A stretch of DNA of 31,302 nt from a virus. Position 1 is the first letter of the stretch. Every line of letters starts with the position of its first letter. Below are positions 1-31,002 of the stretch, in pieces. The DNA is taken from the IMG/VR virus record IMGVR_UViG_3300033052_000006, positions 1 through 31,302 of that record. One strand, 5' to 3'. The position numbers were made by a program, and so were the translations under genes. The notes under the pieces are model-generated. The model worked only from the letters and a program-made list of their open reading frames with translations, had not been told where the DNA came from and ran no database searches.

Positions 1-1332
1 GGATTCAACTACATTGCTTTCCTAAAAGCAACGCCGGGTACGAACAAAGATCTTCCAGTCAAACAAAGCAAAGTCAAGGCTCTATACAACAAACTCAAGG
101 ACGAGAAGTCTGACGTCCGCACGATCAATGTCGATACGACTGATGGTGTCAATCTGATCCAAGGCCCAACCGTCACTAATTGGAAGTTCACGACTCCAGA
201 GTTTATCAAAGCTTCGCACTTCGAAGACACAGACGTCAAGAAAGAAATCGCAAAGCTCGAATCGTTCCTGTCTAAGAAGAACCAAGACATGTCGGACTTG
301 CTCCGTAAGGACGTGACGAACTTCGAAGTTGCACAGATGCCATTGAGTGGGATCAAGACCTCGATGCGTAGTGAAGCCAAGGGCTACAAAGAAGGTGTTA
401 ACAAGAAGATCCTTGATTCGTATAAGCTTCCAATCAAGCAACAGCTATTGGACAAGTTCGTGCGCAAAGTCAAGCCACGCCTCCAAGACCGAGATGTCGA
501 GCCAGATGAAGATCTAGGCATGGAAGGCATTGTCGTGTTGGATCCAAAGTCATTGAAGCAATTCAAGATTGTTGACAAGGATCTATTCACGACATTGAAC
601 AAATTCAATTATGAGATTCGCAACAACATCCGTGGCGTGGTCCGTTCTGATGACGATGAAGCTCCATTGAACCTACGTGGTGGTTTGCTTGGCACAGCAA
701 AGATCCGTATTGCTCGACTCTTTGACATGAATGGGTTGGCCAAGGGCTACACGACCAAGAAGGTCATTGCTAAGTTCAAGGGTGAATCGCCAGAACAAAC
801 TGTTCAGAACATTGCTGACTCGTTGCCAGACTCAGATTATCGCGCGTTCAAGGAAAAGATCAAGGCGATTATCGAATACACCTTGCAGGAACTCCAAGAG
901 ACCTTGGACAACTTCAAAGAGAATCATGCCGACTACAAGGTCAAGCTAGATAACGGCAAGACTGTTGGATACACACAAGAAGTTGTTCGCCGTACGTTGC
1001 TAGTCTTTGCTGAGACTCGCAAATCGTTGCAACGCATGGAAGACAAGATCGAGAACTGTAACTCTATGGAAGATGTTGTTGTGGCCATGTTTGGTAAGCA
1101 GATTAAATCGCTGTTTGGGAACGATCCTGACGAAGGTGAGGAATCTATCACCGAAGACGCGGATGGTGGCGCAGGCGGCGACGTCGGGGACGGAGGCGGC
1201 ATTCCTTTGGGCGGTTGTGTTGTGGCTACATATTCGCCAGCAATCGCGCCAGTGCCTAAGCGATTGTTCAAGGGCAAGATGGTTCGTCGAATCCAGAAGT
1301 CATTTGTCAAAGTCAAGAAAAAGAAGAAATAA
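1..1332 (+). CDS. Nucleotidyltransferase-like phage protein, 5' truncated
   Basis: This frame is open from the first base with no stop before TAA at 1332, so the gene begins upstream and at least 443 residues are present. The internal ATG at 289 lies inside continuous coding sequence and is not taken as the start. A segment at 523-579 reads EGIVV, then about eight residues later FKIVDK. This spacing resembles motifs IV and V of covalent nucleotidyltransferases (RNA/DNA ligase fold), but the nucleotide-binding KxDG motif would lie outside the window. Large T4-like phages often carry uncharacterised proteins of this look. The middle is helical and charged. The C-terminus is a Gly/Asp-rich linker, then a short hydrophobic stretch and a Lys-rich tail ending in six lysines. 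It heads a rightward gene series. The gene call is firm; the enzymatic assignment is tentative. Confidence 0.6.
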   Translation, partial: GFNYIAFLKATPGTNKDLPVKQSKVKALYNKLKDEKSDVRTINVDTTDGVNLIQGPTVTNWKFTTPEFIKASHFEDTDVKKEIAKLESFLSKKNQDMSDLLRKDVTNFEVAQMPLSGIKTSMRSEAKGYKEGVNKKILDSYKLPIKQQLLDKFVRKVKPRLQDRDVEPDEDLGMEGIVVLDPKSLKQFKIVDKDLFTTLNKFNYEIRNNIRGVVRSDDDEAPLNLRGGLLGTAKIRIARLFDMNGLAKGYTTKKVIAKFKGESPEQTVQNIADSLPDSDYRAFKEKIKAIIEYTLQELQETLDNFKENHADYKVKLDNGKTVGYTQEVVRRTLLVFAETRKSLQRMEDKIENCNSMEDVVVAMFGKQIKSLFGNDPDEGEESITEDADGGAGGDVGDGGGIPLGGCVVATYSPAIAPVPKRLFKGKMVRRIQKSFVKVKKKKK

Positions 1333-1389: not shown

Positions 1390-2271
1390 ATGTCTGATTT
1401 TATTAAAGAACTTCTTGCTCTACGTGAAGAAGATGATGTCGTTTCAGCTGGTGATTTGAAGATCGATGACCAAGTTCACGCGAAGTTGGATCAAGAAGCT
1501 GAAGATGACGATATGGATGCGCAGTGCTTCGGGCTAGAAATGGAAGACGGCAAGGTCGTCAAGGTCTATGTCAAGCAAGAACAAGCTGAAGATTTCGAAC
1601 AAGCGTTGAGCCAGAAGCTCGGCGAAGAGGATGATATTCAAACAGTCCTAGATGAACTAGAAAAAGATTTCGAAATTTTAAAGGTCACTTGGCCGGATGA
1701 AGAGCAAGAAGGCGAAGACGAAGAGTCTGAAGAAGATACAAACGAAGATGGTGTTGATCCAGAAGAGCAAGATGGATCCGATTCGTTGAACAGTGAAGTC
1801 AATTACGATGACACCAAGAAAGAAAGCCTAACACTAGGCCAACTCTTCGCTAAGAAGATTTTGGATGAAGCTAAGTGGTCCGATGAAGAATCAAAGGAAT
1901 ACAAAGCCGCTGCTACACCAGATGAAGATGAAGATGAAGGCGGCGATGACGAAGAAGAAACCGAAGAGCCAGCACCAGAAGAATCGAAGCCAACTAAGGT
2001 TGAGTCTAAGTGGAAGATCGAAAGAGATGAAGATGGTATGTCTATCTCGAATGATCGCTTCTCAATGGAGTTGGATGCCGATGAGGCAATGGATCTCGTA
2101 AATAAGATGACAGATAAACAAATTGCACGCTTCAAAAATGAGCATGGCAAGATTGTTTATGTGTTCACGCCACGTGGTTCGGAGTACATCCTTAAAACAC
2201 CTGAGTATCAAGGTGGATTCCGTATCCCACAAGAAATCATCGACCAAATTAAAGAAGATCCTGAAAAATAA
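1390..2271 (+). CDS. Highly acidic phage protein, function unknown
   Basis: A 293-residue protein with an AAGGGA ribosome site 7 bp before ATG and a TAA stop. I do not recognise a family. It opens with a short helical segment (SDFIKELLALREE). Residues 35 to about 200 are extremely rich in Glu and Asp, with low-complexity runs near residues 107-135 and 175-200. The last 90 residues form a more ordinary, probably folded domain (from SKWKIERDEDG to the Lys-rich end). T4 prohead core and scaffold proteins share the acidic, low-complexity character, so a scaffold or DNA-mimic role is possible, but no sequence motif shows it. It sits 8 bp before the exonuclease gene and two genes before a glutamate ligase, which makes it a conceivable substrate or partner; that is inference only. 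Confidence 0.8.
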   Translation: MSDFIKELLALREEDDVVSAGDLKIDDQVHAKLDQEAEDDDMDAQCFGLEMEDGKVVKVYVKQEQAEDFEQALSQKLGEEDDIQTVLDELEKDFEILKVTWPDEEQEGEDEESEEDTNEDGVDPEEQDGSDSLNSEVNYDDTKKESLTLGQLFAKKILDEAKWSDEESKEYKAAATPDEDEDEGGDDEEETEEPAPEESKPTKVESKWKIERDEDGMSISNDRFSMELDADEAMDLVNKMTDKQIARFKNEHGKIVYVFTPRGSEYILKTPEYQGGFRIPQEIIDQIKEDPEK

Positions 2272-3404: not shown

Positions 3405-4871
3405 ATGAGAATTGGTGTACTTACCGAAGAACCAAAAAACGAAGACGTTGCTATTGCGTTGAAGGAAGCTGGCGAGAAGTTGGGCGCTGAAATCGTTATC
3501 CTTGACCTCAATGAATTTGGCGTCATCAACTTTGCTAAGCCAGAAGTTCTGTATCAGGGCAAGCCGCTAACCGATCTAGATGCATGTCTAGTTCGTGGTT
3601 CTGAAAGCAAGCTCGCGTTTCGTACTTACATCGTTGATTATTTGACCAAGCAAGGTGTCGTCATGGTCAACAAGACTGATGCGATTAAGATCTGCGATAA
3701 CAAGTTCGAGACCCAATCAGTTCTCAATGGCGTTGGTATCAAAACTCCAAACACCGTTGCATTGGTTCAAATCGAACAACTTGATGCAGCGGTTCATTAC
3801 CTAGAAGAAAAGTTCCCTATGATCGTGAAGACGGTCTCGGGTTCTCATGGCGTTGGTGTGATCAAAGTCGAATCCTACGAGGGTTTGAAATCGATCGTTC
3901 AGTACTTGCTTGCACAGAAGACCGACATCATGGTTCAAGAGTTTATTCCTCACAAGGAATCTGGCCGTATCATGATTCTTGGTGGTGAAGTCATCGCAGC
4001 AGTGATGCGTACGATCCCAGACGGAGACTTCCGTTCGAACATGGATCAAGGCGCAGAACTCAAGAAGCATGAAGCCTCGGAACAAGAAGTTGAGACTGCC
4101 TTGAAGGTGGCTGACACACTTGGATGCATGATTAGCGCAATCGACTACATCATGGACACCGATGGCAACATGGTTATCTTCGAAGCCAACAGCTCGCCAG
4201 GCTTGAAGGGCATTCAGTCCGTCAATGAAGGCGTTGACATTGCTGCGAAGATCATGGAGTTCGTGATCGCTGAAGCCGGAAAGAAGGGTACCTCAGAACC
4301 TCAGGTTCAAGACCAAGAGGAAGAAGAGGAAGAGGAAAAGAAGAAACGCAAGCACTACAATACCAAGGGTTACATCGCGATCCCTGTTGGCGGTTACCAC
4401 AGCCATGATGGTCAACCACCTAAGGATGAAACTCCGCCACCTGACGGCGATCAGGGCGGTTCTGGTGATACTGATGGAACCGACGAAGAAGAGGAAGAAC
4501 AAACCGCTGTAGGCTTGAACGAACAAATCGTGATCAAGCGTATCAATGATGACAAGCCATTCGAAGCTAAGGTCGATACTGGGGCTGATCGCTGCAGCTT
4601 GCATGGCGAGAGCATTGAAGTTGGCGAGAACTTCGTCCGCTTCAAGATCGAAGAAACTACGTACAAAGTCCCGCTTGAAAGACATGTGAATGTCATTCAA
4701 TCGAATGGCAGTGAAAGACGCCCAATCGTTAAGTTCAATGTCGAATTTAACGGCAACTCATATGATGGGATTGAATTCAACATTTCAGATCGTTCCGACA
4801 TGTCGTACCAAGTCATCATCGGTAAGAACTTACTGGAAGCGGCGGAAGTGTTGGTGAACCCAGCACAATAA
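3405..4871 (+). CDS. RimK-type ATP-grasp glutamate ligase fused to RimB-type aspartic protease
   Basis: A 488-residue two-domain protein. Residues 1-295 are a complete RimK-like ATP-grasp ligase: a pre-ATP domain (1-88), NKTDAIKICDNK (89-100), the nucleotide-binding strand and Gly loop around MIVKTVSGSHGVGV (139-152), VQEFIP (177-182), and the metal-binding end IDYIMDTDG...IFEANSSPG (246-266). Residues 300-368 are a charged linker with two glutamate runs (305-311 and 361-365). Residues 370-488 are a retropepsin-like domain of the RimB/ATP-dependent zinc protease family, with AKVDTGA (388-394) holding the catalytic Asp and the diagnostic DRSDMSY...IIGKNLL (462-477). RimK enzymes ligate glutamates to protein C-termini, classically ribosomal protein S6; the protease partner is thought to trim or process the product. 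Both active sites look intact. The ribosome site is weak. The substrate here is unknown. Confidence 0.92.
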   Translation: MRIGVLTEEPKNEDVAIALKEAGEKLGAEIVILDLNEFGVINFAKPEVLYQGKPLTDLDACLVRGSESKLAFRTYIVDYLTKQGVVMVNKTDAIKICDNKFETQSVLNGVGIKTPNTVALVQIEQLDAAVHYLEEKFPMIVKTVSGSHGVGVIKVESYEGLKSIVQYLLAQKTDIMVQEFIPHKESGRIMILGGEVIAAVMRTIPDGDFRSNMDQGAELKKHEASEQEVETALKVADTLGCMISAIDYIMDTDGNMVIFEANSSPGLKGIQSVNEGVDIAAKIMEFVIAEAGKKGTSEPQVQDQEEEEEEEKKKRKHYNTKGYIAIPVGGYHSHDGQPPKDETPPPDGDQGGSGDTDGTDEEEEEQTAVGLNEQIVIKRINDDKPFEAKVDTGADRCSLHGESIEVGENFVRFKIEETTYKVPLERHVNVIQSNGSERRPIVKFNVEFNGNSYDGIEFNISDRSDMSYQVIIGKNLLEAAEVLVNPAQ

Positions 4872-11821: not shown

Positions 11822-11829
11822 TATTTATT
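11822..11829 (-). promoter_or_regulatory. T4-type late promoter core AATAAATA
   Basis: Read leftward it lies 33 bp before the ATG at 11789 and overlaps the last bases of the upstream fibre gene stop. Confidence 0.6.
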
Positions 11830-13750
11830 ATGCATAGACTGCAGTCAAAGCATACCACTTGGTAGCCGAAACTGCAACGAATTCAATTTTTGCCAATGTT
11901 CCCAAAGAGAACGCAGCGTTGGCTGCCAATGCATCGATCGATGCACCAGAAGCCGGATACACGTTAATTGCGGACCCGAGCGTGTTGACGACTGTTACCA
12001 ACATACCTGCGGCAGCGGAAGGCAAGACAACACCACCAGTACCAGAAGTCACGACTGCTATTGCAGTCGTCAACGCTGTACCGGTACCTTGCGTTGTACC
12101 AGCTGCTGCTACTGCTGCATTAACAGAGCTATTAAAGAACGTACCATTAATTTGCGAAGCAATAATCTGCAACGCACCATTACCAGTCGAACCAGTACCA
12201 CCAGACGCGATGATACGCGCATCAAAATCAATAGAGTTTCCGCTTGAATGGAAATCAATATATGGCGTGTTCGATGCGCTCAACGAACCAAGTTCCAATC
12301 CGGCGTTAGATGCAGTAAAGTTAGTTACTGCTGCTTGGAATGTCGCGCCGCCAATTACAGAAAGCGTACTCGAGAACGATCCAGTAGTAAATGCACCAGT
12401 TGAAGCGGTTGTCGCGCCAATTGAAGTTCCATTGATTGTGCCACCAGTGATCGTTGCGCTACCAGTGTTAACCGAGTTACCAGTGATGGATCCAGTGAAC
12501 GTCACATTACCAGAATCATCCATTGACATGATGGCTGTGGTATATGCGTTGTTGATGATCTGGAACGCTCCAGAGTTCGCGCGAATCGTCTTGCTTGGTG
12601 TTGTACCACCGTTGCCGGTCAACTTGATGTTCGAACCATTACCACCTGTATCAACGACTGTCAATGCTGCAATAGTACCAGACGTAGTAAACGTAGCACC
12701 AGGAGCCGAGATCGCGTATGAGAATGATGGAGCCGATGACATCCAAACTGATTTGGTTCCTCCAATAATATCCCATTCCGTACTACCACGTGACACCAAA
12801 ATTAGTGAGTCGCCTGGAGCAAGGTTAATTGTCTGAGTTGTAGTTCCGCCAATTACAGGTGGGTTATATAAGAAGTCCGAGCCTTGGCATGAAACTGCCC
12901 ATGTCTGGGTAGAGTGGTTCACAATTTGAATCTGTGCGCCAAGCCAGCAAGTCGCGCCAGAAGGCAATGTCAAAACCTGAGATGCAGTTGAGCCGCCAAG
13001 CTGAATCTGCTGCCCCATATTGGTCACAGTCAACGTAGTATTCGCGTTAACGAACGTGAATCCATTCAAGCTGCCAGTATTCTTACGAACGAATGCAGTA
13101 GTTGCAACGTTTGTTGTGTTATCGGTTACAGTCTGCGTAACTGCGGTCACTGTACCCGGGAATGAAACTGTGCCCTGAATCGTGGTAGTGGTCGTGCTAG
13201 TTGCGGACCCAATGTTGATGTTGGTCGTTGAACCAGAAACACCAGCAGTACCGATGTTGAGAGTTTTTGTCGATCCGGAAAGCGTTGCACCAGTTCCTAA
13301 GCCATAGGTCGAAGTAGCGGTGGATGAACCAACGGTTACAGTAGCAGCCGAGAATGTCGTAGTTCCGCTGAATGTCTGAGTCAACGAACCAATCGTTGCC
13401 AAAGCGCCAGTCAAGTTTGGCAGAGTGTACGTTCTGGTCGTCGCGGTTGTGATACCGCTTAGCTCGAACTTTGCAATTTTCGTAGGATCGGTATTATCGT
13501 TCAACGTGAAAGTCACATCGTCAACCGCGCCATATCCAGAAATATCTGAAGTCGATAGCGTAATGTTGCCAACACGTCCTGCCACAGTGTAAACAGGTCC
13601 GATTTCAACGATCGCATCTGCGCCGTCATTCTTTTTTAGGTATAACTTACCATCGTAAGTATTCATACCAAGTTCGCCCAAAGCAAGATCCGAAGTCAAT
13701 GGGACCTTACTCGCAACTGAAGATCTTTTAAGGAGAAGCTGATTTGCCAT
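11828..13750 (-). CDS. Tail fibre / adhesin protein A
   Basis: 640 residues. The first 75 (LLLKRSSVASKVPLTSDLAL...TYDGKLYLKK...VAGRVGNITLSTSD) are closely shared with fibre B and partly with fibre C, and probably form the attachment or trimerisation part. The middle is Thr/Ser/Gly repeat sequence typical of elongated phage fibres. Residues 545-640 (AAVAAAGTTQG...INVYPASGASI...) are a globular module also present in fibre B, here at the very C-terminus where a receptor-binding head would be. AGGGA lies 9 bp before the ATG. The host receptor cannot be read from sequence. Confidence 0.85.
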   Translation of the reverse strand: MANQLLLKRSSVASKVPLTSDLALGELGMNTYDGKLYLKKNDGADAIVEIGPVYTVAGRVGNITLSTSDISGYGAVDDVTFTLNDNTDPTKIAKFELSGITTATTRTYTLPNLTGALATIGSLTQTFSGTTTFSAATVTVGSSTATSTYGLGTGATLSGSTKTLNIGTAGVSGSTTNINIGSATSTTTTTIQGTVSFPGTVTAVTQTVTDNTTNVATTAFVRKNTGSLNGFTFVNANTTLTVTNMGQQIQLGGSTASQVLTLPSGATCWLGAQIQIVNHSTQTWAVSCQGSDFLYNPPVIGGTTTQTINLAPGDSLILVSRGSTEWDIIGGTKSVWMSSAPSFSYAISAPGATFTTSGTIAALTVVDTGGNGSNIKLTGNGGTTPSKTIRANSGAFQIINNAYTTAIMSMDDSGNVTFTGSITGNSVNTGSATITGGTINGTSIGATTASTGAFTTGSFSSTLSVIGGATFQAAVTNFTASNAGLELGSLSASNTPYIDFHSSGNSIDFDARIIASGGTGSTGNGALQIIASQINGTFFNSSVNAAVAAAGTTQGTGTALTTAIAVVTSGTGGVVLPSAAAGMLVTVVNTLGSAINVYPASGASIDALAANAAFSLGTLAKIEFVAVSATKWYALTAVYA

Positions 13751-13769
13751 TTGGAATATTCCCTATGAA

Positions 13770-13787
13770 AGGACATAGATATGTCCT
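13770..13787. other. Short inverted repeat in the leader of fibre A
   Basis: AGGACATA-GA-TATGTCCT, 8-bp arms, 20 bp before the fibre A start. It may be an RNA stem or protein site; it has no T-tract of its own. Confidence 0.35.
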
Positions 13788-13797
13788 ATAAAACAAA

Positions 13798-13830
13798 AAT
13801 AGTCTAGTGCCATTACGACACTAGACTATT
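13798..13830 (-). terminator. Terminator of fibre B
   Basis: A 12-bp stem (AATAGTCTAGTG / CACTAGACTATT) with a 9-base loop is followed on the leftward strand by ATTTTTGTTTT. It lies 20 bp after the fibre B stop and its outer edge overlaps a late promoter box. Confidence 0.85.
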
Positions 13831-13834
13831 TATG
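13827..13834 (-). promoter_or_regulatory. T4-type late promoter core CATAAATA
   Basis: On the leftward strand it precedes the fibre A gene, 77 bp before its ATG, and shares four bases with the stem of the fibre B terminator. Confidence 0.5.
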
Positions 13835-13849
13835 CTATTCTTGAAATAA

Positions 13850-15757
13850 TTAGAACGAGCCGCCGTCGATTGTTCCTGAAAGATCAGCGGTCGGAATCGT
13901 TGCGGAAGCAGTCATTGCTGATGTTCCATTGCCCTTGACGTAACCAGTCAACGTTGCCGCACCAGTACCACCGTTTGCCACTGCAAGAATACCAGAGATG
14001 AATTGAGCTTGAGTGATTGCCTGGTTTGTTGTATGCCATTGTGTAGACGATGAGCCAAACACTTCAATAAATCCACTTGCTGGAAGTGAAATCGGAGTGT
14101 TAGCAGACAAACCATCAAATGCATGACCAACTGCTGGATACACGTTAATCGCCGAGCCAGTTCGGTTGACAATGACCGCATACTTACCTGAAACTGCGCC
14201 AGGAACAACAACACCGCCAGTACCAGACGTGACAATATTAATATCGCTTGACAATGCCGTTGCTGTACCTTGAGTTGAACCCGCTGCCGCAACACCGGCG
14301 TTAGTCGAGCTTAACAAACCTGCTGCGGTAGAACCAGCCGGAATAGTAAATGCTGTTGTTAGACCTGTTAAAGTTGTAATATCACCATTGGCGCCTGATT
14401 GTGCGGCACTTAGGTTTGAACGAGCAGTAGTAGCATTGTTTGCACCGGTACCACCGTTTGCTACAGCAACAACACCGGTCACGTTTGCAGCATTACCAGA
14501 AATGTTTGTTGAGCCTAGGGCCGTAGCGATCTGAGCACCAGTCGCAGCAGTAAATGCCGAAGTACCGTTACCGTAAACCACACCGGTCAACGTTGTTGCA
14601 CCAGTACCACCCTTCGAGACTGAAATCGTTGTACCGCTCCAAGTACCAGTCGTGATCGTGCCAAGCGTTGTAATCGAAGTTTGACCGACATAGGAAGAAG
14701 AGATATCGACACCAGAACCAGAAACCGAAATGCGGTTAGTCGTGCCTAATACGCTCAACGTGTTGCCAGATTTTGATAGACCGTTACCAGCTGTAATCTG
14801 ACCTGCACCAGAGAATTGGGTGAACGTTAGAGCAGTCGAACCTAGAGTGATTGGTCCATTCGTTACTAAAACAAATCCATTGTCGCCGTTGACTGTACCA
14901 TCCGTGACAAAGGTAAACATACCTGGCGTAACTTTAGCTGAAGTATCAGCGTCAGACGAGCGAGACCAAGCGCCAGATGCAGCAACATAAATCCCGTTTT
15001 CGGCACCAGCGGTTTGATCCTTTAGCAGGACACGATCGCCAGAGGCAACAGTAATGCCATCAATGGTAAGTAGGCCACCAGTCGCGAAGTCGATGTTAGA
15101 GCCAGTCGAAGCAACGCGAACAGAGTCTTTCACATCCAAGCTTTGCTGAATCGCATCAACGTATTGCTTGGTTGCAGCGTGGAGAGCTTGGGTTGGGTCA
15201 CCTGACAACGTTAGGTTGCCAGTCATGGTTCCGCCAGCCAATGGCAATGCACCAAGGTTTGTCAGAGCTGCTGGTGCCGATGTTGCGCCAGTACCGCCAT
15301 TAGTGATTGCAACTGTGCCAGTTACGTTGGCTGCTGTTCCAGAGACGTTACCAGTGATGTTCGCGGTAATTGTACCAGCAGTAAAGTTTCCTGAGGCATC
15401 TCGAGCAACAACGGTAGAGGCAGTGTTTGCGCTCGTTGCGTTTGAAGTAATGACACCAGTGCCAGAGTTGTAAGACAATCCAGTACCAGACACGCTGATT
15501 GCTGATCTAGCACGAGTGTTTGTGAAATACTGGTTAGTGGACTCAGCAACATCTGACGTGCTAAGAGTAATGTCGCCAACACGCCCAGCAACCGTATAAA
15601 CAGGACCAATCTCAACAACTGAAGCTGATCCGTTATTTTTTAATAGGTACAACTTACCGTCATAGGTATTAAGCGCGATTTCACCAAGCACCAAATCCGA
15701 AGTCAAAGGGACTTTGGCTGCAGTTGCAGATCGCTTCAAGAGAATTGAATTAGCCAT
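13850..15757 (-). CDS. Tail fibre / adhesin protein B
   Basis: 635 residues. The N-terminal 75 residues match fibre A closely (ILLKRSATAAKVPLTSDLVL, VYTVAGRVGDITLSTSD). A segment around residues 175-195 (LPLAGGTMTGNLTLSGDPTQ, HAATKQYVDA) is the common phage tail-fibre repeat. Four copies of a GGTGA motif are spread through the protein, two of them followed by TLTG-V/Y-x-GNGTSA. Residues 487-578 hold the same module that ends fibre A, here followed by about 55 more residues finishing in IDGGSF. Long side-fibre or baseplate-attached fibre is likely. Confidence 0.85.
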   Translation of the reverse strand: MANSILLKRSATAAKVPLTSDLVLGEIALNTYDGKLYLLKNNGSASVVEIGPVYTVAGRVGDITLSTSDVAESTNQYFTNTRARSAISVSGTGLSYNSGTGVITSNATSANTASTVVARDASGNFTAGTITANITGNVSGTAANVTGTVAITNGGTGATSAPAALTNLGALPLAGGTMTGNLTLSGDPTQALHAATKQYVDAIQQSLDVKDSVRVASTGSNIDFATGGLLTIDGITVASGDRVLLKDQTAGAENGIYVAASGAWSRSSDADTSAKVTPGMFTFVTDGTVNGDNGFVLVTNGPITLGSTALTFTQFSGAGQITAGNGLSKSGNTLSVLGTTNRISVSGSGVDISSSYVGQTSITTLGTITTGTWSGTTISVSKGGTGATTLTGVVYGNGTSAFTAATGAQIATALGSTNISGNAANVTGVVAVANGGTGANNATTARSNLSAAQSGANGDITTLTGLTTAFTIPAGSTAAGLLSSTNAGVAAAGSTQGTATALSSDINIVTSGTGGVVVPGAVSGKYAVIVNRTGSAINVYPAVGHAFDGLSANTPISLPASGFIEVFGSSSTQWHTTNQAITQAQFISGILAVANGGTGAATLTGYVKGNGTSAMTASATIPTADLSGTIDGGSF

Positions 15758-15785
15758 GTATTATTTTTCTTTAATGGTTGCTTGG

Positions 15786-15793
15786 TATTTATC
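15786..15793 (-). promoter_or_regulatory. T4-type late promoter core GATAAATA
   Basis: On the leftward strand it is 29 bp before the fibre B ATG at 15757, in the 59-bp gap after fibre C. Confidence 0.6.
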
Positions 15794-15816
15794 CAAATAG
15801 TTACAAAATGTAATGC

Positions 15817-16533
15817 TTAATACACCCCTCCGTCGACATCACCATTGATGTCAGCCATTGTTAGAGTGATAACGCCAGTACGTCCTGCAACAGATAGAAC
15901 TTCATATGCGGTACCATCTAGCTTGTCCCAAGTCGTGCCGTCAAAAATAACAACATCACCAACGTTCCAGCTATCCAAACCATTTAGGTTGGTGTTGCCA
16001 GCAACAGAGACCTTGTAGTAATGACCTTTTGTTCCAACGCTAGAAGTTAGTGTTGGAGTGTTGGTTCCAGCGTTCCATGTTCCTTGATAGACAACAGAAC
16101 CAACCACTGCAGCAGTCAGTTGTGAAGCTGGGAGGCGCCCAGTTGCATCAAGAGTAGCTAGGCCATTTGCTGCGCCACGAGTAGCGGCATCAGCAGGAGT
16201 AAATCCAAGGGCGTTTGTGACATCAGTCGAAACTAAAGGACCGCCATTGACAACTCGTCCTTTTGCATCGACTGAGACTTTGGTGTACGTACCAGCAGCG
16301 ACACCAGTGTTGGACAATGATAGTGCAACAGAACCATTTACTGCTGTTCCGATGACATCACCGGTAAATTCCGAAGCACCTGCGCCAAGCTCAATGATCG
16401 TCGCGGTGCCATCATCCTTGCGCATGAACAGCTTACCATCATACGTGTTCAATGCCAATTCACCTAAGATGAGATCGGCTGTGGTAGGAACCTTTGAAGG
16501 CGTTGACGTGCGCTTAATGAGAATATGAGACAT
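15817..16533 (-). CDS. Short tail fibre-like protein C
   Basis: 238 residues. The N-terminus (HILIKRTSTPSKVPTTADL, GELALNTYDGKLFMRKDDG) is homologous to the first 50 residues of fibres A and B. The central region has NALGFTPADAATRGAANGLATLDATGRLP, a common linker of phage fibres, and a YQGTWNA...GHYYKVSVAGN module frequent in tail proteins. The VAGRTGVITLTMADI motif, N-terminal in fibres A and B, appears here at the C-terminus just before the final DGGVY. AAGGA ribosome site; 10 bp downstream of the preceding gene's stop. Confidence 0.82.
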   Translation of the reverse strand: MSHILIKRTSTPSKVPTTADLILGELALNTYDGKLFMRKDDGTATIIELGAGASEFTGDVIGTAVNGSVALSLSNTGVAAGTYTKVSVDAKGRVVNGGPLVSTDVTNALGFTPADAATRGAANGLATLDATGRLPASQLTAAVVGSVVYQGTWNAGTNTPTLTSSVGTKGHYYKVSVAGNTNLNGLDSWNVGDVVIFDGTTWDKLDGTAYEVLSVAGRTGVITLTMADINGDVDGGVY

Positions 16534-21653: not shown

Positions 21654-24600
21654 TCAGTATGTATAGGTCGGTGGATTAAACACCGGAGTATCGAACGAAG
21701 TCGACGATCCAACCACCACGCTTTGATTCAAACCCGTCACAACTGCTTCGCCATATGGCTTAGTCAGTTTGAAGTTGTCGGTATCAGTCACGTCATCAAC
21801 GTTGTAGTGGAACACACCACCGCTGATCTTGTTGCCAATCGTCAAGTCTTCAAACGCTGAAGTCCAATCGCTTGCTGAAAGGATTGCCATCGTTGCACCA
21901 GACAAATCGGTACGGAATGCGACCTTGTACTCACCAACTGAGCTTAGGAACGGAAGCTGAGATCCAGGTGCATCGGAGTACCCCCATGCAATTGGACGTT
22001 GCTGCCATGTTCTCTTTCTCGAGTACAACTCTGGCATTGCGACTTCACCAGAAGCACGAACATCAGCCGGAATTGATGAATCACCTTCTTGAGTCTTGAC
22101 CAAAGTCGCATACTCGGAAGGATGAACAGACGACTCAACCCATTCATACAACTCAACCGACGAGAAGTCGGCCAACGCTCCCCAGTACGAGAGACGCGAA
22201 TCCAAGTTAGGGAAGATCAAAGTATCCGAATATGGAATGTACTCGAGATCCTTTGTGTTCCACCAGATACGACCCACGTCCTTGTTATCCCATGGACGGT
22301 ATGGATCGTAGTTCGCGTTGTTGCTTGTACGAACCGAGTAGTTGTACTTTGCTGGTTCCTCTTCAGTGACCATGTCCACAATCTCCAAAGCTTCTGGAGT
22401 ATGCGAGCCACGTGCTGGATCCCACAAAGCCAAATCCTCAACAATGACTTCGTTCTTGTAGTCAATCAGCTTAGCTGGGCTGAACTTTGGCTGCGATGGC
22501 GAGAAGCAACGTACAACGAACTTACGTGGCGCCGACAATGTGTACGTATCCAAGTCGATCGCTGACGTATCGTTTGTAAACGAAATCGTCGAGGCATTGA
22601 CCAGTGTGAAGTTGTTAACACGGATCAAGAATGGCGACATATCACCAGTCTTCAAGAACACTTGTTCAAAAACTTGAACGGTGTCCGCAATGACTTGCTT
22701 ACCATTCTGCGCCAAGTCGTACAACGTGCCAGGCCAAACGTTCGTAAACGTGAGCTCAGCAATCTGCTCAGCTGCAAACGAAAGGTCAGTCGTTGGATCG
22801 ACTTGACCAACCCAACGCTCTTCATCCAACGCGCTGATATTGATGAAGCCAAGAGCCGATGCGGTCGAATCTTGATTAAACTGGATCTTCGTGAACTTGT
22901 GCTGAGTATCGGCCGAATTCAACTTGATCTCTGGGAACAAGAGTTGGCGTGCATCACCAAATGATGCAAGCTTGTACGCCCAGTATTCATCGATGTGTGC
23001 CGATTGGAATCGCGATGAATTCAAGAACGCATCAACTGACATATTTGAACCCTTGTTGCTGATCAAACCTCTCCAGAAACCGAATTGAGTCTTGTCAGAA
23101 ATATCGATGTCAGTCATGTACGACTTGCTGTCGTAGCCTAGGAGGCCACGTGCGTGCTTAGCCGTTGCGCTGTTATCGATCATCTTGTCAGCATCGTAGT
23201 AGTTCAGCATGTCCGATACCGAAGCTTCGATGTTGCGCTTGACACCATCGGCCTTGATGTAGTGACCCCCAAACGACAAACGTCCATTGAAGTTCAACTG
23301 ACGATTTGCGGTGATGTTCAAGCGGTTAACGCGAACGCCAAGGAACGGATCATACAGCAAACGTTGACGAGACTTGTCGTACGTGTAATCTTCGAACAAG
23401 ACGATGTGCTCGTACTCATCGATTAGCAAGTGGATCCCGCCGATTACGACCTTAGACTGAATTTCAGTCATCGTGTCATTACGGAAGATCTGGATGTCCT
23501 TTTGTGCAATCGTGTTGCCAAACGAATCAAATACCGATTGGGCAGTCGTGACATCGGAGATCGTTGGGTTTCTCAAGTTCGAGACAAAGCCGTGCGGAGT
23601 TTCGAACCACACTGCGGTCGAGAACGGATTCAAGATCGTACCAGTTCCAGCTTGGACTCCCAAATATTGCTGGTTGATGAAACGTTCGATGTAGAACTGC
23701 CATGAGATATTACGACCGGTCGCAGGATCGATCGATGGCTCTGTTCCAGCATTGAATCTCCAACCATCTTCTGTCAGCTTGTCAACATAACCGAATAGGA
23801 CATTTGCAACGTTCTCAATCCCAGTAACTATGAATGGCATCGTTTGAGTCACGAGTTCATCACGCTCTGTCAAGTGAGTCCAAGAGTCTTTCGAGTTTGC
23901 TTTCTCAAAAGCAAAGTACGTCTTGAACTTGCCATCAGCCTTGTACGTGTAGTACTGGATCGTTGGGTTATGTGTATTGAATGTCTCAATACGGAACTGC
24001 CAATCTTCACCCTTGTTAGCAGGCAAAATCTTGCCATCAACGGTCACAGTCGTCCCAATGCGGATCAACTGAATACGAATCGCGTTCAGCCAATAGCTCT
24101 TGATGTTCTTGTTCTGCTTGAGAACAATCGAGTGGTCGCTGCTGTGAACTGGGAACTGATCAGACTTAACGCTGAACGTTTCAGTATTGACGAGACCAGA
24201 CAAACGGTAGCCAAGCTTGAGATCCCAATCGCGAAGAATGTTTGACGACAAAGCAATGCTCATGTCAACAGCATTGTAGCGATTGTAGTTAACGAACCAT
24301 TGGTTCAAGCCAGCAAACTTCGCGTACTTAGTTGGAACATAAGTGACCTCCATCGATGGAACCTTAACAATTAGCTTATCGCCAATGTTGAAGTCAGTGC
24401 CGTTGTCGAGAACATAAACGCGTAGACCGGCTGTAATCATCTCGGTGTTGCACACGTACGAAGATGTCATCAAACCCGAAATGTTGCCAACCAATGAGAA
24501 CATGCTGCCATTTGGCGTATTGCCAACGCAAGTCAAGGTCCATTGCGTGTCATCTGTATTCGATGAGATATCCGAGACCATGAAGCCACCAAACTTAGGA

Positions 24601-27353
24601 GTTGGTGTTTCACCATGGAGAATGAATTCAGTGTGGCCGACTTTACGGTGCTCGTGACGATCGATATTGTATTCATCAACAGCCACGATGTTGTAACCCC
24701 AAGTCACATTCACGAAATTGATAGGATCAAGTTTGAAGCAAACCTTCAAGCAGTCGTATGCATAGTCAACGGAGTTTCTCCATTGAACTTCGGTTGGACC
24801 GTTCTCGCCAAACGCAAATGGAATCGCGATGCCCGAAGGGATCGTCGTCATCAACGCGTTGACAGACGAAGGTAAGCTTGGTGAAACATATGGCGGCAAC
24901 AAGGTGTCGGTGAACTTATCAACACCGATCTTCTTGGTCCATGGTCCGGTTGGCGCTGGAAATGGAGCGGTATCGTTCTTGATGTCGGACCACATTTGGG
25001 TCGTCCAGAGTCGCGAGCTGTCCGCAGATGCGTACACGCCATCCCACCAGCTTGGCTTAGAAGTGTAGCCTTGTAGAACCCATGGTTCCAAGTTTGGACG
25101 AGTCGTGCCAAAGTAAGCTTGGTAAATCGTGAACCAGCGAGCCGCACCAGCCGGAACACCAGCCACAGAAACATTCTTGTAGTTCCATGTGAACGCATCG
25201 GTTGGATCGTAATCCGATTGTGTGATGTCCAAGCCATGGTTGGCCGCGTACACTGCGAACTCTTGTTCAAGCAATGTATTCGAACGTGGCTGACCCACAC
25301 CAAGTGCTAGACCGACATCGATCTTCTGTGGCAGCGCAGGGCAAGCCGTGTACAGTTGTCCTTCAACCATCAAGAACAATTGTGAGATAGCCGCCGACGT
25401 GTTGACCACCTTCCAAGGTGCCATCATGTCTGTGACAACAACAAAGACCTTGGTTTCAGCGTTGTATTGGTACAGAATGTGGGCTTCACGGTTGTAGTAG
25501 TAATCACCATCCGCGTTGTTTAGAGGCTCAACCGAATCAGACGTGATCGAGTAGACCTTCAACGTGGCCGTGTTTTGATCGTACCAGAATTGATTCTTGT
25601 AAGGCTTCAATGGTGGCAAGTAGCCGTTCACACCAGCTGTCGTTTCGCCATCTGAACGCAAGAAGGTCATGTGAGCAATGTTCTGCTCAAGTTCAACGTC
25701 AGAAGTCTTGACTTCTGAGTAGTGGCCATCATGGTGGCGCATGGTCAACACGCCAGTAATCTTGTCAAAGAAGATGCGTGGTTGAACTGCAGTCGCCAGA
25801 CCAAGGTAAGGCAGCGTTGCTGGGAATCCCGGGATGCCAGAGGTCGTGTCTGCAAAGACAGACGAATCATTACGAGTTGCCACGAACGCCAAGAACGAAT
25901 CGTATAGAGATTGAAGCTTTGGATCAATCGTGTTCGTCAACGTGGTTGTGAATGGCTTGACTGTTCCATCAGTCATCAAGTCAGCAATGTTACGCTCAAC
26001 GTATTCGGTGACTGCGCCAAGCATTTGCGCGTATTGAAGCTTAGCAAAGTTGATGATGCCGGGAACAGTGCTATCAAGCTGGTTCGTCAAACCTAGGAAT
26101 AGACCGAAGTTACTGTTGTAATCCTTGATGCGGCCGCCATAGCCAGGATCGTGCTGAGCCATTTGGCGGTAGTTGTTCGTACCGTATGGGTTGCCAGAGA
26201 AACCAGGTTGGGCGGCGATGATCGATACAAAGTGTCCTAGGAGGTCGCCATAGCCGATCTCTTTGCGATATTCATGCGAGATGTTGTAGAACATCTGGTT
26301 CGGAAATTTCCACGCCCCTACGGCATCCTGGTCGGTCTTAGGATCTCCGACAACAGGCTTGCCATCTGCATCAGGCACATAGTAAGCTGGCGATTCTTCT
26401 GGGCCATTTCTCCAGATTGAGCGCAATGCGCCATTGCGCTTATAGAACAAAAGGCGCTTGCCGTCTTTGCTGAGAAGACCTTGTCCAAAGACATAGTCGT
26501 TGTTCGAGTTCGTCTTAGCACGGAATTTGAGTTGTGCATCGATTGGGAACTCATTGCCTTCAGCATAGTAGAAGATTGGGCTGACGAATCCAGAGTGTGA
26601 CCCATCTTGTAGGTACAAGTTGAACAGAGGCTTCTGGTTGAATTCGGTCTTGTAGCCATCAGCCGTTTGATCCACCATGGTTCCAATCGAATCTGGCTTA
26701 CCATTGTTCATGTGGAGAACCATCTCGGCTTCCATACCATCTGGGAACAAGATGATTGGTCGCAATGCTTGGATCGTCGAGTCAATCGAGAATGAGTACC
26801 CTTGAGCCTCGAAGAATTCATTCGCGTCAGCTTCATGGATCCAGTAGTTGTATTTAGCCCAGTCAGAGGTTCCGCTTTTCTGGATCACGTAGTACTCCGG
26901 AGCCATGGTTGGGTTGTGGACCGGAGACACTCCCATCAAGTGTCCGTACCAACGGTAGCGTGAGTAGTTACAGAACGCATCTAGGTTGATTGGCGGAGCG
27001 AAGTTGAAGCTATTCGCCTTACCCCAATTGGCAAACTCGGTGATGTCGACACCAAGCATGTCAAGCTTGAGAAGGACATCCTTGAATGAGAAGATGTATT
27101 CTTCAGAGCCGAGTTTTGTGTAGACAGAAGGGATCAGCGAATTGATCTTGCGATCAAAGTCGGCAGCTTCGATGTATGGCGAAGTATCATTAGCTAGTGT
27201 ATCGCCAACATACCCCAATAGAGGCACAGCTTCTTCTTTCGTTAGAAACTTGTTATGAAGGTTTCTAAGAAGAGAAGTGTTTGCGGCTGAGTGGTAGGTT
27301 TTTGGGATGTAGTTAACTAAATCGGTATATTTCTTTGTATAGTCTGTCGACAT
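21654..27353 (-). CDS. Giant virion structural protein in the gp7 position (1899 aa)
   Basis: 1899 residues, the largest gene in the window. An AGGGAAG ribosome site and an AATAAATA box 35 bp upstream support the start at 27353. The first 150 residues (YTKKYTDLVNYIPKTYH..., NWGKANSFNF, YSRYRWYGHLMGV) look helical and aromatic; the rest alternates beta-rich regions with many Trp and Tyr. No enzyme motif is visible. It is the first large gene after the gp6-like protein, where T4 has gp7 (1032 residues), the scaffold of the baseplate wedge. Equating it with gp7 is inference from order and size; it is nearly twice as long, as can occur in large-genome T4-like phages. Confidence 0.8.
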   Translation of the reverse strand: MSTDYTKKYTDLVNYIPKTYHSAANTSLLRNLHNKFLTKEEAVPLLGYVGDTLANDTSPYIEAADFDRKINSLIPSVYTKLGSEEYIFSFKDVLLKLDMLGVDITEFANWGKANSFNFAPPINLDAFCNYSRYRWYGHLMGVSPVHNPTMAPEYYVIQKSGTSDWAKYNYWIHEADANEFFEAQGYSFSIDSTIQALRPIILFPDGMEAEMVLHMNNGKPDSIGTMVDQTADGYKTEFNQKPLFNLYLQDGSHSGFVSPIFYYAEGNEFPIDAQLKFRAKTNSNNDYVFGQGLLSKDGKRLLFYKRNGALRSIWRNGPEESPAYYVPDADGKPVVGDPKTDQDAVGAWKFPNQMFYNISHEYRKEIGYGDLLGHFVSIIAAQPGFSGNPYGTNNYRQMAQHDPGYGGRIKDYNSNFGLFLGLTNQLDSTVPGIINFAKLQYAQMLGAVTEYVERNIADLMTDGTVKPFTTTLTNTIDPKLQSLYDSFLAFVATRNDSSVFADTTSGIPGFPATLPYLGLATAVQPRIFFDKITGVLTMRHHDGHYSEVKTSDVELEQNIAHMTFLRSDGETTAGVNGYLPPLKPYKNQFWYDQNTATLKVYSITSDSVEPLNNADGDYYYNREAHILYQYNAETKVFVVVTDMMAPWKVVNTSAAISQLFLMVEGQLYTACPALPQKIDVGLALGVGQPRSNTLLEQEFAVYAANHGLDITQSDYDPTDAFTWNYKNVSVAGVPAGAARWFTIYQAYFGTTRPNLEPWVLQGYTSKPSWWDGVYASADSSRLWTTQMWSDIKNDTAPFPAPTGPWTKKIGVDKFTDTLLPPYVSPSLPSSVNALMTTIPSGIAIPFAFGENGPTEVQWRNSVDYAYDCLKVCFKLDPINFVNVTWGYNIVAVDEYNIDRHEHRKVGHTEFILHGETPTPKFGGFMVSDISSNTDDTQWTLTCVGNTPNGSMFSLVGNISGLMTSSYVCNTEMITAGLRVYVLDNGTDFNIGDKLIVKVPSMEVTYVPTKYAKFAGLNQWFVNYNRYNAVDMSIALSSNILRDWDLKLGYRLSGLVNTETFSVKSDQFPVHSSDHSIVLKQNKNIKSYWLNAIRIQLIRIGTTVTVDGKILPANKGEDWQFRIETFNTHNPTIQYYTYKADGKFKTYFAFEKANSKDSWTHLTERDELVTQTMPFIVTGIENVANVLFGYVDKLTEDGWRFNAGTEPSIDPATGRNISWQFYIERFINQQYLGVQAGTGTILNPFSTAVWFETPHGFVSNLRNPTISDVTTAQSVFDSFGNTIAQKDIQIFRNDTMTEIQSKVVIGGIHLLIDEYEHIVLFEDYTYDKSRQRLLYDPFLGVRVNRLNITANRQLNFNGRLSFGGHYIKADGVKRNIEASVSDMLNYYDADKMIDNSATAKHARGLLGYDSKSYMTDIDISDKTQFGFWRGLISNKGSNMSVDAFLNSSRFQSAHIDEYWAYKLASFGDARQLLFPEIKLNSADTQHKFTKIQFNQDSTASALGFINISALDEERWVGQVDPTTDLSFAAEQIAELTFTNVWPGTLYDLAQNGKQVIADTVQVFEQVFLKTGDMSPFLIRVNNFTLVNASTISFTNDTSAIDLDTYTLSAPRKFVVRCFSPSQPKFSPAKLIDYKNEVIVEDLALWDPARGSHTPEALEIVDMVTEEEPAKYNYSVRTSNNANYDPYRPWDNKDVGRIWWNTKDLEYIPYSDTLIFPNLDSRLSYWGALADFSSVELYEWVESSVHPSEYATLVKTQEGDSSIPADVRASGEVAMPELYSRKRTWQQRPIAWGYSDAPGSQLPFLSSVGEYKVAFRTDLSGATMAILSASDWTSAFEDLTIGNKISGGVFHYNVDDVTDTDNFKLTKPYGEAVVTGLNQSVVVGSSTSFDTPVFNPPTYTY

Positions 27354-28171: not shown

Positions 28172-28593
28172 TTCTCGTCCTTCTTGATTCGAAACTCGAC
28201 TGCATCTTCCGCTTGCCAGCTGTCTCCAGCTTGTTCTCCGGTGGTAAACGAATAGCCTTTAGGGATAAATCGCTTCAACAGTTTCTCATATGCTGAAGCT
28301 CGTGACTTATCCTTCTTATTAGCCGAGAACTTCATTTCTTTTGGATCATGTTCTTGAATCAACATCTCCATCGATTTCTTGATCATGGCAAAGACTTCAA
28401 ATTCGTTTCCGGATTTAGTAAGGTCGAATGTGTGTCCATTTTCATTGAACTCAATCGACCATACCTCTTTGAATTTGTACGCATGGAATTCGATAGTTCT
28501 CTTTCCAATCGCAGCCTTTGTCACGAACATCGCTGCTTGATTCACATAAACCTCGATGTCCGCTTTACTATTCAAAATCTCATTTAGCTTCAT
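28168..28593 (-). CDS. Small phage protein, paralogue 1
   Basis: 141 residues beginning MKLNEILN, with WSIEFNENGHTFDLTKSGNEFEVFA, then IKKSMEMLIQEH, FSANKKDKSRASAYEKLLKRFIPKGYSF. It is a tandem duplicate of the following gene, roughly half identical by eye, and its start overlaps the gp6 stop by 4 bases, so the two are made from the gp6 transcript. No known role. Confidence 0.8.
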   Translation of the reverse strand: MKLNEILNSKADIEVYVNQAAMFVTKAAIGKRTIEFHAYKFKEVWSIEFNENGHTFDLTKSGNEFEVFAMIKKSMEMLIQEHDPKEMKFSANKKDKSRASAYEKLLKRFIPKGYSFTTGEQAGDSWQAEDAVEFRIKKDEK

Positions 28594-31002
28594 AGGTTCT
28601 GCCTCAATGTAGTAGCGGTAAACGTGCTGACAATTTCAATGTCAGCTAATTGAGCGCAGCTCTGGAGGATTTCATCCTCACCAGAATCGATCACGAACAA
28701 CGAACCAAACGAGTTGTTCACGTACAATGGAACCAATACAACAGATGCAACGTCTAATGGCAAACGTTGGTGAATCAACGAAATCAATTCAGTCGCATAG
28801 AACGTATCGCCGAAGTCCCAGTTGTCAATCGTAAAGAACGTGTTGATCACCGAGATGATTTCAGCCTTAACTTGATCATCCGTCAATGTCGAGCTTGGGT
28901 TCTTAATAACGCGGAAACGTGCACGCAATTGCGAATCAGCCAAGTCACCAAACAACAGCTTGATCTTACCAGAGTGCATAACCACAGTGTCCGAGATCAT
29001 CTTGGTCGACAACAACGAGCTGTACGAGTTACGCAACTCGAGTGGAGTTGGAGGAACTGGAACATAGTTCGTGGTTCTTGCAATGTACTGAGACATTGAA
29101 TCGTTGTAGCCGCTAGTCAAGACAAACATGTCAATGATGTTCGAGGTCGATGGATCGATCAGGTTCGTGTTCGGGCTGAAATGCTGCCACAAGAAATCTA
29201 GACCATCACGCCCAAACTTACGAATGTACTGGCCATCAGTCGAAGTCAACGAGCCTTGAGCAAACAGATTCTTGATCGCTGGCGTAGCAGTGATTGGATC
29301 CGCTGCATAATTAGGATCAGTTGCATCTGGCGCCTTGAAGTACACGTAGTCAACGCTATCATAGTTGTACAAGACAACCTTACCATATACTGGCATTGCA
29401 CCACCAAGTGCTGGATCGGTGAACGTGATCAACGTGTTGTTCTCATCAACTGCAGTGACTGAAGCTACAGCAACAGAGCTCGACACACGAACATAGCTAA
29501 TCACCGGCGTGAACGTACCGAGATTGTGATTGATGTTCCAGGTTGCGTTCAACGTAGGTTGGCTGTAAGCAAACTTGGTTCCAACGTCAACCAATTGCGT
29601 GAACGACATGCTATCGTCTGGAATGCCATCGCCAGAAAGCGCCGAGCCAGTTTGATCGGTTGGCTGAACTTCTAGCGCGTTGACATTGATCACGCCATTG
29701 TCATACTTGACAGCATCAACAACATCAAAGTTACGGTTGGTTCCAATTGCAAGAGTACGAGCGCGATTCAAGTTTGACTTGAGTAGTGCAACACGGTCGT
29801 GAACGCGATCCTTGGTGTTCGAGTCCATCAAGTATGAATCCGAATTGTACCAGAACTTGGTCGTATCCGATTCGACCACAATCTTCAAGTCACGAAACTT
29901 GATTTCCCATTCTAGTGGATTACCTTCCGAATCATCGATACGGCTGATCACGAAGACCCAGGAACGGTCGAAGCTTGGCATTCCTGGGAATGAGTACGTG
30001 GTATCGAAGTCGTTGGTCAAATCAAGGAGTTCTCCGCTGATCGTAAACCAGCGACCATTCAGGTTGACGCCCTGATACGTTACGTCGCCGAAGGTGAACG
30101 TACGGAGTGTTGCGACACCTGATACTACATCGATGACAAAAGAATCGCCTAGAACGAATCCTGATGCGCCTTGGTCGATCGAGAAAGAAATCTTGCCATT
30201 GCTATATGGATCCTCCGCATTTGCAAGCATCGTGCCTTGGTAGCCACTGACCGATCCAGTCACTGAGAACAGGAACGAAGATGCGTTCTGGTTCACGAAT
30301 TCGATCGTCCAAGTTTCGTCTGGCGCATTGTTAGCGACTGTAATTCCAGAGATTGTGCCATCACCATACATCCCGATTTCATTCGAGAAGTATAGGCCGA
30401 ATTGTGATTGCTCAGAAGCTTGTTGCAAACCAGATGGCAAGCCATTCAAGTATGGTGAAGTCCCATTGATCGTACGAGGCATCGTATCGTCATAGATCAA
30501 GTAGTCAGCATCGTTTGACACGTTGGCATAAGTCGTACCGCCAAGAATCACAGTCGAGATTGGTTCACCGTAGAAGTGGCGATCCAACATACCTTGGATT
30601 GCAGTCTTCTCTTGAATACCAAGCGTGGCGTCCTCAATGAATTTGTAACGAGGATTGACTGTGACGTCATGAAGCTGCGAGTTCTGTGCTGTGATGTACG
30701 TGAGCACGTTCAGTGTATTCGAGGTCTTGAGCAATGGCTCGAGAACTGAGTCAATCAACGTACGTGACGAAGCTGTGCTGATGACCGAGTTCAGCTTCAT
30801 GTCGTAGTACATGCGCAAGTCATCGCCAAAGATCTTAACGTTCTGGTAGTTGCCGGACGCATCGTTCCAATCGATGTACTTTGGTTGGCCTGCAAACGTA
30901 CGGTTGACAGCCTTGAGCTTGAGGATCGATGAATCACGGAGTAACAAGGTGTTGTAGTCTTGACCGTTAACCATACGACCTTGCGAGTAGAAAGTCGATG
31001 GC
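28590..31002 (-). CDS. Baseplate wedge protein, T4 gp6-like, 5' end misplaced
   Basis: About 803 genuine residues. The segment PSTFYSQGRMVNGQDYN is the conserved gp6 / baseplate-J motif (AP-x-x-Y-x-x-Q-x-R-x-V-x-x-x-DY). In T4, gp6 forms the ring that ties wedges together. A WNINHNLG domain near 29400-29556 is shared with two other proteins here, and the C-terminal region (TDDQVKAEIISVINTFF...DTFYATELISLIHQRLP) also fits baseplate wedge proteins. An open frame continues to an ATG at 31073, but those 24 residues are antisense to the true upstream part of the same gene, which lies in + orientation at 31003-31223, so they are spurious. The stop overlaps the next start (ATGA). Joined correctly the protein would exceed 870 residues. 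Confidence 0.85.
30924..31002. repeat. Left arm of a 79-bp perfect inverted repeat
   Basis: It is the exact reverse complement of 31224-31302, the last 79 bases of the window. Both arms encode the same gp6 peptide (PSTFYSQG to RDSSI), on opposite strands, separated by 221 bases. Confidence 0.95.

What the first reader, a model, noticed from the sequence alone, without database searches (positions are those of the whole stretch)
3405..4871. Phage-encoded glutamate ligase and protease in one polypeptide (RimK-RimB fusion)
Seen: an intact RimK-like ATP-grasp domain and an intact retropepsin-like domain (DTGA, DRSDMSY) in one frame, joined by a 70-residue linker with two oligoglutamate runs. Known: RimK adds glutamates to the C-terminus of ribosomal protein S6, and RimB-type proteases are encoded beside rimK in some bacteria. 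Inference: the phage may write and erase glutamate tails on host S6 or on a virion protein, and the Glu runs in the linker could act as a built-in substrate mimic or autoinhibitor. A candidate substrate in cis is the very acidic protein at 1390-2271.
Basis: partly seen in the sequence, partly recalled or inferred. Interest (0 to 1): 0.75.

Follow-up and report, generated by a model that had tools for sequence, protein, structure and literature searches.

The report
Phage glutamate ligase–protease fusion enzyme
This phage gene joins an intact RimK-type ligase (likely adds glutamates to proteins) to a RimB-type protease (known relatives cut glutamate tails off); such phage fusions were first glimpsed in 2008, but lineage-specific tails and leaders seen here suggest testable ways it acts on itself or on the host.

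Summary
Window 3405-4871 (+) is one intact 488-codon frame: RimK pre-ATP-grasp plus ATP-grasp (1-286), a disordered acidic linker (about 296-365, with 7-Glu and 5-Glu runs) and a RimB/PF05618 retropepsin domain (369-487). All catalytic residues checked are kept. The same ligase-first order occurs in every viral locus found with both domains (about 100), including Pelagibacter phage Mosig and Yersinia phages YerA41 and GN1, where it goes unrecognised. Bacteria have separate genes or the reverse order.

The architecture is not new: Monier et al. 2008 saw RimK with C-terminal DUF785 in marine phage contigs and haloarchaea; Little et al. 2025 characterised the reverse bacterial RimBK. I found no report of these: (1) the lineage sister to the window's ends in ...EEE in 12 of 13 members, like the acceptor end of S6; (2) the other major lineage starts with a leader like the T4 capsid-targeting sequence, and the YerA41 homologue was found in virions; (3) the window's 7-Glu run meets the published RimB cut-site length.

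The target is unknown. S6 is not favoured: the S6-ligase equivalog model fails and polyglutamate-pocket residues are lost. The acidic neighbour is an unlikely substrate.

The parts
3405..4871 (+). RimK-RimB (K-B order) fusion gene, 488 aa
   Evidence: full-length relatives
3405..3686 (+). RimK pre-ATP-grasp domain (residues 1-94)
   Evidence: PF18030
3696..4262 (+). RimK-like ATP-grasp domain (residues 98-286); K100, K142, E179, R188, R202, F209-R210, D247, E260 and N262 kept
   Evidence: PF08443; residue table; fold match to RimK 7qys/7qyr/5zct, TM-score by target about 0.9
4290..4499 (+). disordered acidic linker (residues 296-365)
   Evidence: pLDDT below 50; fast-evolving
4317..4337 (+). 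7-Glu run (305-311); meets the published length rule for RimB cutting; shared only with L001
   Evidence: rule from PMC11957791
4485..4499 (+). 5-Glu run (361-365) just before the RimB domain; kept in window, L001 and L006/L015
4509..4865 (+). RimB/PF05618 retropepsin-like domain (residues 369-487)
   Evidence: PF05618; solved relative 9g58 E 1e-6
4575..4586 (+). catalytic DTGA (391-394); D391, T392, G393 and R439 invariant in 22 fusions

Best explanation
A phage-encoded bifunctional protein-tail editor. Shown: one polypeptide with a complete RimK-type ATP-grasp active site and a RimB-type retropepsin active site, kept together in ligase-first order across a large family of phages, with both domains conserved. 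Inferred: the ligase half adds amino acids, most probably L-glutamates as alpha-peptides, to the C-terminus of a protein in the infected cell. The tethered retropepsin half, probably as a dimer of two fusion molecules, trims such Glu tails and may stimulate the ligase, as free RimB does to RimK. The Glu-rich disordered linker keeps the two together and can compete as a substrate. The target is most probably a host (or early phage) protein other than, or not only, ribosomal S6, so that the enzyme sets the tail length on a host process during infection. In other lineages a T4-like leader suggests that the enzyme is packaged and injected with the DNA; the window's own lineage lacks that leader and would make it after entry.
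For: Pfam and NCBIfam domain assignments. ATP/Mg ligands identical to solved RimK in all fusions tabulated. DTG and R439 invariant. Best fold matches are solved RimK structures, including one with RpsF, 5zk6. K-B order in 46 of 46 sequences of the first harvest and 76 of 76 of the second, counts that include some repeats. The two domains' trees show the same main split, so they have travelled together. Bacterial RimB cuts Glu tails, and free RimB stimulates RimK poly-Glu synthesis (PMC11957791). The YerA41 homologue is a middle gene whose product was found in virions (PMC7354516). A leader matching T4 IPIII 'MKTYQEFIAEA' is on 59 of 69 fusions with an N-terminal extension against 15 of 682 other ORFs, at least 4 of the 15 being truncated fusions.
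Against: No activity has been shown for any phage member. Bacterial RimBK of D. psychrophila showed protease activity but no glutamylation of the one RpsF tried (PMC11957791). Polyglutamate-contact residues R8 and S14 are missing in the window, so the donor or acceptor may differ. YerA41 'virion' proteins also include cytosolic enzymes, so carry-over is possible. No phage S6 gene was found in 13 viral records, and the hosts are unknown.
Confidence: 0.5

Rival explanations
1. The main substrate is the enzyme itself. In the sister lineage the ligase extends its own ...EEE C-terminus; in the window lineage the retropepsin cuts the 7-Glu linker and frees the two enzymes (a self-timed polyprotein), or the linker blocks it until the right moment.
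For: 12 of 13 members of the sister lineage end exactly in EEE (the other in EE) although the rest of the tail differs; counting all fusions, 15 of 86 end in EEE against 1 of 690 other ORFs. Codons vary among GAA and GAG, and in most cases the next gene starts too far away for the tail to be a ribosome-binding site. E. coli S6, the RimK acceptor, ends ...AGDSEE. RimB cuts internal runs of 6 or more Glu; the window and L001 fusions are the only ORFs with such a run in 220 ORFs of three related contigs. The K-B fusion of a Haladaptatus plasmid ends ...NEE.
Against: The 7-Glu run is absent in L006 and L003, and the window lineage ends ...NPAQ/NPAA/NPQE. The T4-leader lineage has neither feature. 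Acidic disordered tails can have other roles. The EEE tail is one inherited trait, so the counts are not independent.
Confidence: 0.2
2. It is an amino-acid ligase/protease pair with another donor or acceptor than poly-Glu on S6, for example a modifier of a virion or phage protein.
For: R8 (near-invariant in the bacterial RimK sampled) and S14 are lost in the K-B fusions tabulated, bar an R in the divergent YerA41-type protein; H215/R216 vary. It fails the S6-ligase equivalog, with MptN (a glutamate ligase on a coenzyme) the next-best model. The YerA41 homologue was found in particles.
Against: It passes the RimK-family alpha-L-glutamate ligase cut-off; R64, R189 and N262 of the glutamate site are kept; it is always joined to a RimB-type domain whose characterised relatives are Glu-specific. 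No other window ORF with relatives has a conserved Glu-ended C-terminus that would mark a partner.
Confidence: 0.22
3. A poly-alpha-glutamate synthase: the fused RimB domain stimulates untargeted poly-Glu synthesis, draining host glutamate or making a polyanion.
For: Free RimB stimulates RimK poly-Glu synthesis (PMC11957791).
Against: RimB also cuts Glu runs; pocket residues R8 and S14, near the bound Glu chain in the RimK structure, are lost.
Confidence: 0.07
4. Chance join, frameshift or assembly artefact.
For: None found.
Against: Independent full-length relatives in about 100 viral loci and two sequenced phage lineages.
Confidence: 0.01

Closest known systems
Phage RimK with C-terminal DUF785 in GOS marine contigs (Monier, Claverie and Ogata 2008, PMC2530865)
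   Same: Same two domains in the same order, in phage contigs next to T4-type genes; the authors also report K-B order in Halobacteria
   Different: DUF785 was then of unknown function; Glu-run linker, EEE tail, T4-like leader and virion link were not described in the passages read
Bacterial RimBK hybrid (Desulfotalea psychrophila DP2392; Little et al. 2025, PMC11957791)
   Same: RimB and RimK domains in one chain; protease active on polyglutamylated RpsF
   Different: RimB at the N-terminus; all four bacterial hybrids read here (L109, L111, L112, L212) are B-K
Pseudomonas RimA-RimB-RimK system
   Same: Homologous ligase and retropepsin; the model for writer and eraser of RpsF tails
   Different: Separate genes; polyglutamate-pocket residues R8 and S14 present
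Cyanophage 'ribosomal protein S6 glutaminyl transferase' (S-RIM8, S-RIM12, S-CAM8)
   Same: Phage RimK-like ATP-grasp
   Different: About 296 aa, no RimB domain; a separate branch of the tree
T4 internal proteins IPII/IPIII
   Same: Sister lineages carry a leader matching MKTYQEFIAEA
   Different: The window protein has no leader; the enzyme domains are unrelated

Membership tests
RimK-family alpha-L-glutamate ligase (TIGR00768/PF08443) | Model score over curated cut-off | tested here: met
   TIGR00768 175 against 143 bits; PF08443 133 against 21 bits
RimK-family alpha-L-glutamate ligase (TIGR00768/PF08443) | ATP/Mg ligands (K100, K141, E178, D248, E260, N262; RimK numbering) | tested here: met
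   identical in all K-B fusions tabulated
Ribosomal protein S6--L-glutamate ligase (RimK proper) | S6-ligase equivalog NF007764 | tested here: not met
   117 against 331 bits
Ribosomal protein S6--L-glutamate ligase (RimK proper) | Polyglutamate-contact residues S7, R8, S14, R64, S68, R189, N262 | tested here: not met
   R64, S68, R189, N262 kept in the window; S7 to T, R8 to E, S14 not kept
Ribosomal protein S6--L-glutamate ligase (RimK proper) | Adds Glu to S6 C-terminus | not testable with these tools
   needs assay
RimB/PF05618 retropepsin-like protease | PF05618 over cut-off and DTG aspartate | tested here: met
   50.8 against 27 bits; D391-T392-G393 invariant
RimB/PF05618 retropepsin-like protease | Cuts runs of 6 or more Glu | not testable with these tools
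   needs assay
Bacterial RimBK hybrid | RimB domain N-terminal to RimK | tested here: not met
   order is K-B in all viral fusions; B-K in bacteria
Phage RimK-DUF785 (Monier 2008) | DUF785 C-terminal to ATP-grasp, in phage contigs | tested here: met
   PMC2530865
T4-type packaged internal protein | N-terminal capsid-targeting leader | tested here: not met
   window starts MRIGVLTEE; leader present only in the other lineage

The most novel reading that the evidence does not exclude
Phages use a packaged or early-made ligase-retropepsin as a reversible tail-writing machine that carries its own acceptor (EEE tail) or its own cut site (7-Glu linker), so that self-modification sets when and how much of a host or virion protein is polyglutamylated.
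Probability: 0.15. Interest if true: 0.85.

Novelty: new variant of a known kind. Interest (0 to 1): 0.5.

Why it matters
RimB was shown only in 2025 to be a Glu-specific retropepsin, and the natural target of hybrid Rim enzymes is unknown. This phage family is widespread (at least 595 related stretches in one scan of viral contigs), pairs the two activities in one chain, and carries two lineage-specific marks, an S6-like EEE tail and a T4-like packaging leader, that make target, timing and self-modification directly testable. It would also give a possible function to Mosig_00005 ('glutathione synthetase') and YerA41_066 ('structural protein').

Tried and rejected
Artefact or frameshift: rejected by independent full-length relatives. 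Phage-encoded S6 as target: no PF01250 hit in 13 viral records. Acidic neighbour as substrate: no Glu-ended C-terminus, no Glu run of 6 or more. EEE tail as a ribosome-binding site for the next gene: the next start is too far away in most loci. Glu runs as a conserved device: the 7-Glu run is not conserved beyond L001, and only L019 has another long one. Window protein as a packaged protein by the T4 leader: leader absent. Host S6 tails as a guide: S6 of the bacterial relatives read does not end in Glu in most cases, but the hosts are unknown. The AlphaFold model does not fix the orientation of the two domains (pTM 0.59).

Full report
Observation. The frame at 3405-4871 is intact and codes for 488 residues. 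Pfam finds the RimK pre-ATP-grasp domain at 1-94, the RimK ATP-grasp domain at 98-286 and PF05618 (RimB, 'Zn_protease') at 369-487. An AlphaFold2 model built on 20 viral relatives has confident domains, a disordered linker at 296-365 and uncertain domain orientation (pTM 0.59). Its best solved matches are RimK structures 7qys, 7qyr and 5zct, with TM-score normalised by target about 0.9. The linker holds 7 Glu at 305-311 and 5 Glu at 361-365. Between window and L001, omega is 0.10 in the RimK part and 0.35 in the linker; synonymous sites are saturated or nearly so in most comparisons, so only the contrast in dN (0.13, 0.71 and 0.15 for RimK part, linker and RimB part) should be used.

Surroundings. 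The window is a viral record of 31,302 bases with myovirus-type genes on the minus strand: a baseplate wedge subunit (28590-31073), a virion structural protein (21654-27353), a PAAR protein and an endolysin-like protein. On the plus strand the fusion follows an RNA-ligase-like protein, an acidic protein, an exonuclease and a small protein, and precedes proteins of unknown function and a 2OG-Fe(II)-oxygenase-like protein; this order recurs in L001 and L015.

Relatives. Viral scans gave 46 fusion sequences in the first harvest (26 after removing shared C-termini) and 76 in the second, all with the ligase first; the two harvests overlap in part. Among named phages the fusion is in Pelagibacter phage Mosig and Yersinia phages GN1 and YerA41. 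Cyanophage RimK-like proteins lack the RimB domain and form another branch. In bacteria rimB and rimK are separate neighbours or fused in the reverse order. A haloarchaeal plasmid has the K-B order, as Monier et al. noted for Halobacteria (PMC2530865). Trees of the RimK part and of the RimB part both divide the phage fusions into the same two major lineages. The phage fusions are one side of a branch with strong support in the first tree (100/99) and with weak support when the haloarchaeal row is added (87/45 and 84/69), so a single origin is likely but not proven.

Active sites. In every K-B fusion tabulated, K100, K141, E178, R189, R203, F210, R211, D248, E260 and N262 (RimK numbering) are kept. 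In the RimB part D391, T392, G393 and R439 are invariant across 22 sequences. The residues that hold the growing Glu chain in the Pseudomonas RimK structure (S7, R8, S14, R64, S68, R189, N262; PMC10092738) are only partly kept: R8, nearly invariant in the bacteria sampled, is E in the window and variable in the relatives, and S14 is lost. The protein passes the RimK-family alpha-L-glutamate ligase model but fails the S6-ligase equivalog. Chemistry is therefore likely conserved; acceptor choice is open.

Three lineage features. First, in the lineage sister to the window's, the C-terminus ends in EEE in 12 of 13 members of the tree and in EE in the other, with otherwise different tails. In the first 14 loci 11 of 11 such fusions and none of the other 179 ORFs (which include three window-lineage fusions) end so; over all viral loci it is 15 of 86 fusions against 1 of 690 other ORFs. 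E. coli S6 ends ...AGDSEE, so these tails look like a built-in acceptor. Second, in the other major lineage a leader such as MEKFKSFITEAK or MKAPKFREFITEAK is common: 59 of 69 fusions with an extended N-terminus carry it, against 15 of 682 other ORFs, at least 4 of which are truncated fusions. T4 internal proteins II and III start MKTYQEFIAEA, the capsid-targeting sequence whose residues 4 and 7 direct packaging and 8 and 10 direct cutting (PMC9026906). In Mosig the fusion is the only one of 184 ORFs with such a start. The YerA41 homologue, by its position after the two ribonucleotide reductase genes (g109, g110), is g112 'ribosomal protein modification protein', a middle gene whose product was found by LC-MS/MS in purified particles (PMC7354516); the matching of gene numbers is my inference, its own leader does not fit the motif, and cytosolic enzymes were found there too. 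Third, the window and L001 fusions are the only ORFs with 6 or more consecutive Glu among 220 ORFs of the window and two related contigs; bacterial RimB cuts runs of that length, also inside proteins (PMC11957791). The run is missing in L006 and L003. All counts treat related sequences as separate and must not be read as independent tests.

Mechanism. The best-supported reading is a tail editor: ATP-driven addition of amino acids, probably Glu, to a C-terminus, and removal by the tethered retropepsin. Self-modification or self-cutting is a serious rival and could be part of the same mechanism. S6 is possible but not favoured. The acidic neighbour is unlikely. Steps shown: domain identity, active-site conservation, lasting linkage. 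Steps inferred: donor, acceptor, dimerisation, timing, benefit to the phage.

Known and new. The architecture in phages dates from 2008 (PMC2530865) and the reverse bacterial hybrid was assayed in 2025 (PMC11957791). I found no report of the EEE tail, the T4-like leader, the Glu-run linker or the recognition of the RimB domain in Mosig and YerA41, but only an open-access library was searched.

Noticed in passing
window 1390-2271; A6: The acidic neighbour belongs to a conserved family upstream of the fusion in the window and EEE lineages; 4 of 10 members have a weak, sub-threshold similarity to DarA_N (phage P1 defence-against-restriction protein).
   Followed up: partly
L032:6125-8236 and L033:4873-6930: Three-domain fusions: a nucleotidyltransferase-like domain (PF01467, detected in L032) ahead of RimK and RimB.
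   Followed up: partly
L001:2163-3926, L002:1885-3612, L015:3191-4984; window 1-1332 is the truncated orthologue: RNA-ligase-like proteins (weak PF09414 hit in L001) start with an FKDYL/FKSYL-type leader resembling the leader of the other fusion lineage, hinting at a shared packaging signal.
   Followed up: partly
L014:5424-6392: A phage protein of 322 aa with a RimB domain but no RimK domain.
   Followed up: no
L210:2540-3616: Haladaptatus plasmid K-B fusion, not listed in the plasmid gene table, apparently lacking its N-terminal part; it also ends ...NEE.
   Followed up: partly
L019:8605-11833: Five consecutive ORFs ending in nearly the same peptide (TNGLRQYAKL-type); similar endings occur in L018, L010, L024 and L025.
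   Followed up: no
window 11828-16533: Tandem ORFs, probably tail-fibre-like, that all match the same L001-contig protein.
   Followed up: no
L198-L200 (Pelagibacter phage Mosig): The phage carries an annotated 30S ribosomal protein S21 and a tmRNA, so it may already interfere with host translation in other ways.
   Followed up: no
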